The notes under the pieces were generated by a model, which saw nothing but the letters and a program-made list of their open reading frames with translations, was not told where the DNA came from and did not search any database. A DNA stretch of 64,000 nt from Planctomycetota bacterium (GTDB lineage: Bacteria; Planctomycetota; UBA1135). The position numbers and the translations under genes are program-made. Positions 41,504 to 43,805 of this stretch are shown here, piece after piece. The stretch spans positions 62,001 through 126,000 of the forward strand of contig JAAESM010000042.1 of the NCBI GenBank assembly GCA_024229395.1, in the 5' to 3' direction. Within the stretch, counting starts at the first letter, position 1. Each line of letters opens with the position of its first letter.

Positions 41504-42148
41504 CTAGAAGTGATAACCCACGGCGACATAACCGACCATGCCGCTGAGGTTATGTTCGAAACCGGAGCTGGTCTCGTTGGCGTTGACGTGGTGTGATTTC
41601 ACGTCGGGCATGCCTTCGTACATGAAGGCGGCTTCCATCGAGAAGTTCTCACTGACCGCCATGTTGACGCCAGCACCAACGGCCCAAGCCAAGAAGCCAT
41701 CGGATTCGAAACGCTCTTGCTGGAACTCCAGGCCGAAGTTGTAGATCAACTGCGTGGAAAGGAACGCGGTCAATGCGCGGTCACCGAAGTATCTACGCAA
41801 ACCAGCGTGGATCTGATTGCCCTTGATCGGCGGACCGAGGGTCTCTGGGTGGTACTCGCGCGCATCGATACTGACCGTGGCCGAGAACTGATTACCGATC
41901 AAGCGTTCCAGCTCGATACCGTAGGAACTGAAACGATCCAGCTCGAGGCTGGAGTTCAGAAGCGGTGGATCGTTGACCACATCATCGGCCTCTGCATCGA
42001 TGCTGCTATAGACACCGGAGCGGAACTTGACCGTGTGGAAGCCGGAAACATCTTGCTCCTTGATGCTCGAATACGGCGGGATGAAGCTGCATGATCCGCC
42101 AAAACCAATGGCGAGAGTAAGAAGGCCGAGCGCAAGACTGTTCCGCAT
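41504..42148 (-). CDS. Small outer-membrane beta-barrel protein
   Basis: Signal/lipobox-like GFGGSC; alternating beta strands; terminal VAVGYHF. Confidence 0.65.
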   Translation of the reverse strand: MRNSLALGLLTLAIGFGGSCSFIPPYSSIKEQDVSGFHTVKFRSGVYSSIDAEADDVVNDPPLLNSSLELDRFSSYGIELERLIGNQFSATVSIDAREYHPETLGPPIKGNQIHAGLRRYFGDRALTAFLSTQLIYNFGLEFQQERFESDGFLAWAVGAGVNMAVSENFSMEAAFMYEGMPDVKSHHVNANETSSGFEHNLSGMVGYVAVGYHF

Positions 42149-42205
42149 GGGGCAGAGGATAGCAGACCGCGGTGACGGCCTGCTACCTAGCGCTCGGCGC
42201 TGCTT

Positions 42206-43612
42206 CTACTGAATCACGACGACCTTTGGTTCGGTCATGAAGTGATTCACGCCATCGGTCAGATAACCCTGCAGGAAAATGTGGCGGTTCGCCAGGCTGG
42301 CGGTGGTCGGGATGTTGATATCCAAACTCAAGCTGCCCAAGCCGTTGCTGTGCTTGACAGGGGTAGGGCCGATCTCGAGATCCAAGCCGGTGTAGTTACT
42401 TGGCACGGCTTCAAAACCGGTGAAGATCGCAACGCGATGCCCCGGGTAACCCACGAAATCAATGTGAATGCTGTCGCCAAGATTCGGCGTGGTGTCGCTG
42501 ATGACCAACTCACTCTCGTGGGTATGGTTGGTGCTGACGCCAGGCAAGTTGTCGAACACCACCACGGCTTCATTGCCTTGCATGGTCACGTACAGCTTGT
42601 CATGCGCGAAAACTGCGTCGTTGGGCATGGTGTAGCCAAGGCCACCCAGGGAGGTGGTGGTGAGCAACACATCGTTGAGCAGATCGACCAATACCAACTC
42701 ATTGGTGGTGAAGCCACAAACGGCTAGCAGCTCTTCATGCACGGGCTCGAGCGCCAAGCCATAACCATCGATACCCATCAGGTCGATGCCGCGATCGAGA
42801 TTGCCTTGTGCATCCAGACGGTAGATGCGGCCGAGGAAATCCAGGCCCGACAAGTAGCCGCGCCCGTTGCTCAAACGCACCACATCCTGACCACCAGGGT
42901 AGCCGGCGTAGTTATCCATGCTTTCGACATACCAGCTGTCGTCGGGGTTGGTGCTGGAACGATTGTGGCGGAACAAACCACCCATGGAACCATCAAAGCT
43001 GGGCGTGTACTCAGAGGTAGGCACCCAAACCTCATCGCCGACGGCGATCATGCGGCCGTTGGAACGGAATAGCGTGTTGAAGCCGGCGAGCGGGTCGTAA
43101 CTGAGGGTTGCGATATCGATCGCGTGAATGTCGCCACTGCCGTCGGCAGTACTGATCAGAAAGTTGCCATCGTGGGCGAGGATGCCAAAGGGATAGCAAG
43201 TGCCGAAACCGAACGGGTCCGGCAGCGGAATGGTGGCCACGATGGTGTGGTTGGCATCCCAGATGGTCACGCTGCCGCTGGTGGAGTTGGTGACTGCGCC
43301 ATAAACAAGCGCACCATTACTGTCGTAATGGAAGGCGATGTCTTCCGGATAGAGCCCGACATTGATGCTGCTCAGGATCGTATCGGTGGCCGGATCGATC
43401 ACCGCAACCGCATGATTGGCGCCGGCGAAATCACCAGCGATGGCAACGTAAATCCGGTCGCTTACCGGTTCGTAGCTAATGCCGAATGGCTTGGCAGAAT
43501 TCAGTGGGTCGCCGAGGCCGACGAGATCGATTTCCTGCTTAAAGGATTGTGCAGCAACAGGCGTTGCGCACAAGACGGCCGTTAAGGCCACTAGGGTGCA
43601 TGCTTTTCGCAT
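42206..43612 (-). CDS. Exported beta-propeller (YncE/NHL-like) with C-terminal beta domain
   Basis: Signal peptide MRKACTLVALTAVLCATPVAAQ; repeated blades such as NHAVAVIDPATDTILSSINVG, NELVLVDLLNDVLLTT, NEAVVVFDNLPG. Confidence 0.75.
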   Translation of the reverse strand: MRKACTLVALTAVLCATPVAAQSFKQEIDLVGLGDPLNSAKPFGISYEPVSDRIYVAIAGDFAGANHAVAVIDPATDTILSSINVGLYPEDIAFHYDSNGALVYGAVTNSTSGSVTIWDANHTIVATIPLPDPFGFGTCYPFGILAHDGNFLISTADGSGDIHAIDIATLSYDPLAGFNTLFRSNGRMIAVGDEVWVPTSEYTPSFDGSMGGLFRHNRSSTNPDDSWYVESMDNYAGYPGGQDVVRLSNGRGYLSGLDFLGRIYRLDAQGNLDRGIDLMGIDGYGLALEPVHEELLAVCGFTTNELVLVDLLNDVLLTTTSLGGLGYTMPNDAVFAHDKLYVTMQGNEAVVVFDNLPGVSTNHTHESELVISDTTPNLGDSIHIDFVGYPGHRVAIFTGFEAVPSNYTGLDLEIGPTPVKHSNGLGSLSLDINIPTTASLANRHIFLQGYLTDGVNHFMTEPKVVVIQ

Positions 43613-43660
43613 GGGGATTCTCCTTCCGGGGGTCTCGCCCGGATCTTGGTGGGAAGCTGC

Positions 43661-43805
43661 CTTCAAGAATGGTGCTCCGACTTAAGCGACACATGGTGTG
43701 GCTATTACGGTGGCGGACCCGTGGAGGATTTGCACCTCCTTCCCCGAATCCTGAAGGGAAAGCGAATTTAAAGTGAACTTCGGCGCGATGCCGAACCTGA
43801 AGTAT
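43661..43805 (-). promoter_or_regulatory. Cobalamin riboswitch-like element
   Basis: Minus strand reads ...GGGGAAGGAGGTGCAAATCCTCCACGGGTCCGCCACCGTAATAGCC...AAGTCGGAGCACC..., matching the B12 riboswitch core (GTGCAAATCC, GCCACYGT) and B12-box; CTTCA/TGAAG closing pairing. Confidence 0.8.

What the first reader, a model, noticed from the sequence alone, without database searches (positions are those of the whole stretch)
41504..43805. Cobalamin-riboswitch-like element controlling an exported beta-propeller and a small beta-barrel: candidate BtuG-like B12 capture system
Seen on the minus strand: GGGGAAGGAGGTGCAAATCCTCCACGGGTCCGCCACCGTAA...AAGTCGGAGCACC, the core signature of cobalamin riboswitches, about 50 nt upstream of the beta-propeller start. 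The propeller is exported and followed 57 bp later by a small outer-membrane barrel gene on the same strand. Established: BtuG of Bacteroides is a surface beta-propeller that binds B12 very tightly and works with BtuB. There is no TonB-dependent BtuB here, so this could be a distinct route.
Basis: partly seen in the sequence, partly recalled or inferred. Interest (0 to 1): 0.87.

Follow-up and report, generated by a model that had tools for sequence, protein, structure and literature searches.

The report
B12 riboswitch controlling an exported beta-propeller
An uncultured planctomycete that apparently cannot make vitamin B12 has an RNA switch of the B12-sensing type in front of a secreted propeller-shaped protein, and the pair is kept together across its whole family, so the protein is probably part of how these bacteria capture B12 even though it is not recognisably the known capture protein of gut Bacteroides.

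Summary
A short-form cobalamin riboswitch lies on the minus strand (about 43757-43620), directly before the start codon (43612) of an exported 468-aa seven-bladed propeller. Rfam RF00174 gives 30.6 bits (E 4e-6), just under its 31.5 cutoff. A covariance model built here from 12 relatives finds a site in 24 of 26 genomes of this Planctomycetota family, directly upstream of the propeller in each; the two genomes without a site also lack the propeller. P5, P13 and the L5-L13 kissing loop covary, so aptamer and translational platform look functional. In more distant genomes the propeller, or a second propeller family, sits in riboswitch-btuFCD operons. The tested genomes lack CbiC but keep B12 enzymes, adenosyltransferase and a BtuC-like permease, so they appear to be B12 importers. 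Best reading: a B12-repressed, exported corrinoid-capture protein working like BtuG. It is not shown to be a BtuG: no lipobox, no linked btuB, no specific sequence match. The 'no BtuB, distinct route' idea is weak: the genome has one TonB-dependent receptor beside tonB, elsewhere. The 8-stranded barrel resembles OmpA/NspA, probably too narrow for B12, and is found in only about 11 of 25 family genomes.

The parts
43801..43806 (-). TATACT, possible extended -10 box (TGcTATACT) of the leader promoter
   Evidence: Read directly in the sequence and also seen in the close relative G005. The consensus scan found no full sigma-70 match, so this is tentative.
43749..43757 (-). P2, 5' strand (CCUUCAGGA)
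   Evidence: Pairs with 43660-43668. Upstream and downstream arms pair better within a sequence than between sequences, 0 of 300 shuffles as high; relatedness is not corrected for.
43723..43745 (-). GGGGAA plus P5 hairpin GGAGG-UGCAAAU-CCUCC (B12 box)
   Evidence: Part of the RF00174 match; P5 pairs covary, e.g. A-U to G-C in 5 of 12 sequences.
43707..43721 (-). L5 hairpin CGG-GUCCGCCA-CCGU; kissing strand GUCCG at 43714-43718
   Evidence: Covariation with L13.
43685..43703 (-). Short P6 hairpin in place of the long class-I extension
   Evidence: Sequence; relatives show the long form in six genomes, and G012 has almost no arm here.
43671..43682 (-). 3' core (J6/3-like) AGTCGGAGCACC
   Evidence: Start conserved as AGYCRG in the leaders compared.
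43660..43668 (-). P2, 3' strand (UCUUGAAGG)
   Evidence: See P2 5' strand.
43625..43643 (-). P13 hairpin UCCGGG-CGAGACC-CCCGGA; L13 CG(A)GAC pairs with L5 GUCCG around a bulged A
   Evidence: P13 stem changes are compensated across relatives; kissing-loop fit exceeded in 0.03% of shuffles.
43620..43624 (-). Shine-Dalgarno AGGAG directly after P13; ATG at 43612-43610
   Evidence: Sequence; similar arrangement in most relatives' leaders.
42206..43612 (-). Exported beta-propeller, 468 aa, signal-peptide-like start, propeller plus C-terminal beta-sandwich (about 360-468)
   Evidence: AlphaFold2 pLDDT 92.6; homologues across the family; Foldseek to YncE, S-layer YVTN and BtuG-type 3DSM propellers. 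Signal peptide judged by eye.
41504..42148 (-). Small outer-membrane 8-stranded barrel, 214 aa, with an invariant Cys20 (possibly lipidated) and terminal Phe
   Evidence: AlphaFold2 pLDDT 80.6, eight main strands; OmpA/NspA/OmpW neighbours; invariant C20 and PPYS; next to the propeller in 10 of 11 family genomes with a strong match, the eleventh cut by contig ends.

Best explanation
This is a cobalamin-sensing riboswitch that turns off translation of an exported corrinoid-capture propeller (and, in this genus, a downstream 8-stranded barrel) when the cell has enough B12. When B12 is bound, L5 of the aptamer kisses L13 of the P13 hairpin, P13 is stabilised and the Shine-Dalgarno sequence that abuts it is hidden. 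When B12 is scarce the propeller is made, exported, binds corrinoid and hands it to the unlinked TonB-dependent receptor/TonB and BtuFCD-like import chain. Shown by sequence and covariation: the riboswitch, its platform, and the conserved linkage. Inferred: the sign of regulation, B12 binding by the propeller, its location, and the partner receptor.
For: RF00174 30.6 bits, E 4e-6. Model R1 places its top site directly before the propeller in 24 of 26 family genomes, including 12 genomes not used to build it; the 2 without a site also have no propeller match. Two-sided changes in 7 of 18 pairs, 14 cells against 3.7 in shuffles, 0/500; L5-L13 shuffles. Relatives outside the family also carry RF00174 hits before the propeller: G027 82.6, G034 70.7, G030 39.4, G093 96.4 bits. 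G027: riboswitch-propeller-btuF-btuC-btuD; G038: riboswitch-btuC-btuD-btuF-propeller of a second family. Importer lifestyle: CbiC 0/25, adenosyltransferase 25/25, B12-binding domains 25/25, FecCD permease 25/25. Strongly acidic propeller (net -15 to -33); BtuG2 binds B12 on a negatively charged face (PMC10404256).
Against: No direct evidence that the propeller binds corrinoid. No specific sequence match to BtuG: a profile search of the PDB at E up to 10 does not list 3DSM, and Foldseek ranks it 40th among generic propellers. No lipobox or surface anchor seen. In this family no riboswitch was detected at the receptor or BtuFCD-like genes, and the receptor scores higher with haem-receptor profiles than with BtuB.
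Confidence: 0.75

Rival explanations
1. The propeller is a B12-repressed accessory that does not bind free B12 itself, for example a periplasmic partner of the TonB-dependent receptor or BtuF, or a corrinoid-processing or remodelling enzyme with a lactonase-like propeller fold.
For: Same regulon and operons with BtuFCD; some members weakly match Lactonase and SGL; the propeller has no surface anchor.
Against: No enzyme family is matched with a convincing score; the best profile matches are to YVTN/YncE propellers.
Confidence: 0.15
2. The propeller serves cobalt or another B12-sparing function, since cobalamin riboswitches also control cobalt transporters and B12-independent isoenzymes (general knowledge).
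For: Known targets of cobalamin riboswitches in other bacteria (general knowledge).
Against: The genomes tested lack CbiC and so have little use for cobalt import; operon partners are BtuF/C/D-like.
Confidence: 0.05
3. The propeller and the barrel form a TonB-independent outer-membrane B12 route.
For: The barrel, where present, sits next to the propeller; the receptor is not in the riboswitch operon.
Against: The barrel is 8-stranded and OmpA/NspA-like, too narrow for a 1.3-kDa corrinoid on general knowledge; it is absent from most of the family while the propeller persists; each of the 32 genomes tested has a TonB-dependent receptor.
Confidence: 0.03

Closest known systems
BtuG of Bacteroides (BtuG2 BT1954; 3DSM fold; PMC6143338, PMC10404256)
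   Same: Exported seven-bladed propeller in a cobalamin-riboswitch regulon of a B12 importer; some members match PF16819 (DUF5074, 7 of 29, best E 6e-8), the propeller family reported beside DUF4465 B12-binding genes (PMC13398666).
   Different: No lipobox, an extra C-terminal beta-sandwich, no adjacent btuB, a different phylum (BtuG was reported as found only in Bacteroidetes), and no specific sequence match to 3DSM.
Cobalamin riboswitch RF00174 (class I) and short class-II forms such as env8HyCbl
   Same: B12 box, L5 hairpin, 3' core, P13 with an L5-L13 kissing loop before the ribosome-binding site; a bulge in the kissing loop, as reported for env8HyCbl (PMC10653944).
   Different: Class-I-like core letters with the long P6 extension shortened or absent; scores below the Rfam cutoff in much of the family, while some sister genera keep the long form.
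YncE / YVTN surface-layer propellers (3VGZ, 1L0Q)
   Same: Nearest by sequence profile and fold.
   Different: Not known to me to be under cobalamin riboswitches.
OmpA/NspA/OmpW-type 8-stranded barrels
   Same: Predicted fold of the downstream gene.
   Different: Carries an invariant lipobox-like Cys and is linked to the propeller.

Membership tests
Cobalamin riboswitch (RF00174) | Covariance-model match at or above the gathering score | tested here: inconclusive
   30.6 against 31.5 bits for the window copy; other copies before the same gene reach 34 to 82 bits in the family and 96 outside it.
Cobalamin riboswitch (RF00174) | Conserved aptamer core with covarying helices and an L5-L13 kissing loop into the expression platform | tested here: met
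Cobalamin riboswitch (RF00174) | Direct cobalamin binding and gene control | not testable with these tools
   Needs in-line probing or a reporter.
BtuG | Seven-bladed propeller fold | tested here: met
   Model pLDDT 92.6; 3DSM TM 0.70 by target length, 3.4 A. Blades were not counted one by one and the fold is common, so this is weak.
BtuG | Surface lipoprotein with lipobox | tested here: not met
   N-terminus MRKACTLVALTAVLCATPVAAQ reads as an ordinary signal peptide; one doubtful lipobox-like match among 29 members.
BtuG | Gene next to btuB | tested here: not met
   No TonB-dependent receptor beside the propeller; the genome's single detected receptor lies on another contig.
BtuG | Sequence homology to BtuG beyond general propeller similarity | tested here: inconclusive
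   3DSM absent from the profile search at E up to 10; 7 of 29 members match PF16819.
BtuG | Tight corrinoid binding | not testable with these tools
   Needs protein.

The most novel reading that the evidence does not exclude
Planctomycetota have their own exported B12-capture propellers, in two families, separate from Bacteroidota BtuG: not lipoproteins, not tied to a receptor gene, and in this family the only gene (with the barrel where present) behind the genome's single detected cobalamin riboswitch, itself a shortened form that the standard model often misses.
Probability: 0.5. Interest if true: 0.75.

Novelty: new variant of a known kind. Interest (0 to 1): 0.62.

Why it matters
BtuG was reported only from Bacteroidetes. 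If this propeller binds corrinoid, B12 capture by exported propellers is much wider, and a poorly known group of B12-dependent planctomycetes gains a testable uptake route. The short riboswitch also shows that the Rfam cutoff misses a conserved cobalamin riboswitch form across much of a family.

Tried and rejected
An apparent propeller-barrel fusion in G002 was rejected: the joining codons read N. Thermodynamic folding alone gave no signal (z -0.92). B12-box-like patterns near the family's receptor and BtuFCD-like genes were only 4-mismatch hits of the kind chance gives. The barrel as a B12 channel was rejected on strand number and patchy distribution. Literature searches for BtuG or cobalamin riboswitches with Planctomycetes, or cobalamin riboswitch with beta-propeller, found no paper in the library held.

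Full report
Observation. The minus strand at 43757-43620 holds the quoted motif. RF00174 matches the whole model at 30.6 bits, E 4.2e-6, just below its 31.5-bit cutoff, which is why the default scan is empty; it is the only RF00174 site found in the genome. The propeller starts at ATG 43612 and ends at 42206; the barrel runs 42148-41504.

Is it more than chance? Homologues of the propeller occur in 23 of 25 family genomes searched at first (one of them, G008, a fragment at a contig end) and in a 24th found later (G123), and thinly elsewhere in the order. The family loci whose leader could be read carry the same element just upstream. A covariance model from 12 short-form leaders finds its best site directly before the propeller in 24 of 26 family genomes; the two without a site (G015, G021, both incomplete) have no propeller match either; one genome (G011) has a second weak hit. 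Outside the family, RF00174 itself scores 39 to 96 bits upstream of the propeller in G027, G030, G034 and G093.

RNA anatomy. P2, P5, the L5 hairpin, a short P6, the 3' core AGTCGGAGCACC, P13 and the Shine-Dalgarno sequence are present. Counted on 12 sequences, 7 of 18 pairs change on both sides, 14 cells against 3.7 in shuffles. L5 GUCCG pairs with L13 CG(A)GAC around a bulged A, and variants compensate (AACCG with CGUGUU, GAUCG with CGAAUC); the within-sequence fit was reached in 0.03% of shuffles. These shuffles do not correct for relatedness. Six genomes keep the long class-I extension, so the short form looks derived by loss (inference). P13 abutting the Shine-Dalgarno sequence suggests repression of translation when B12 is bound, the model described for E. 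coli btuB and env8HyCbl (PMC10653944); the sign is inferred.

The protein. AlphaFold2 gives a confident propeller with a C-terminal beta-sandwich (pLDDT 92.6). The fold matches YncE, YVTN and, lower, BtuG-type 3DSM. Some members match PF16819. A second propeller family (A2), related only at profile level, lies behind the riboswitch in nine further genomes of the order.

Function. In G027 the order is riboswitch-propeller-btuF-btuC-btuD, and in G038 riboswitch-btuC-btuD-btuF-A2 propeller. In G030 a second riboswitch precedes an adenosyltransferase/BtuF-like/BtuC-like operon, and G034 is arranged alike. The genomes tested lack CbiC and keep adenosyltransferase, B12-binding domains and a FecCD permease. 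This makes a role in B12 import the best reading; binding itself is untested.

The receptor question. Each of the 32 genomes tested has at least one TonB-dependent receptor. In the window's genome one was found, beside a tonB, and its profile scores do not settle haem against B12. It is the natural partner by elimination, but that is inference from an 87%-complete genome.

The barrel. Eight strands, OmpA/NspA-like, with an invariant Cys and terminal Phe. It occurs at strong score in 11 of 25 family genomes and adjoins the propeller wherever contigs allow. It may anchor or assist the propeller; it is unlikely to be the channel.

Noticed in passing
window 38199-39716 (+): Reading TGA as selenocysteine joins three ORFs into one 505-aa thioredoxin-like protein with two DFWGDW-U-GPCRALY motifs (U230, U400): a candidate tandem selenoprotein. 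Selenocysteine machinery was not checked.
   Followed up: partly
window 47396-59308 (+): A long run of tandem amidohydrolase-like genes (first one PF01979), with relatives beside the propeller locus in many family genomes.
   Followed up: no
L085 9227-9394 (+) and 9019-9184 (-): Two divergent cobalamin riboswitches back to back in G036; one precedes an A2 propeller, the other a 368-aa ORF without Pfam match.
   Followed up: no
window 42206-42530 (-): The C-terminal beta-sandwich ending of the propeller resembles the ends of other exported proteins encoded just upstream in G007, G012 and G016, perhaps a shared sorting module.
   Followed up: no
L103 9245-11356 (-), on contig G000:C3: The one TonB-dependent receptor found in the genome lies next to a tonB, and its family recurs in 15 loci across the order; ligand unknown.
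   Followed up: partly
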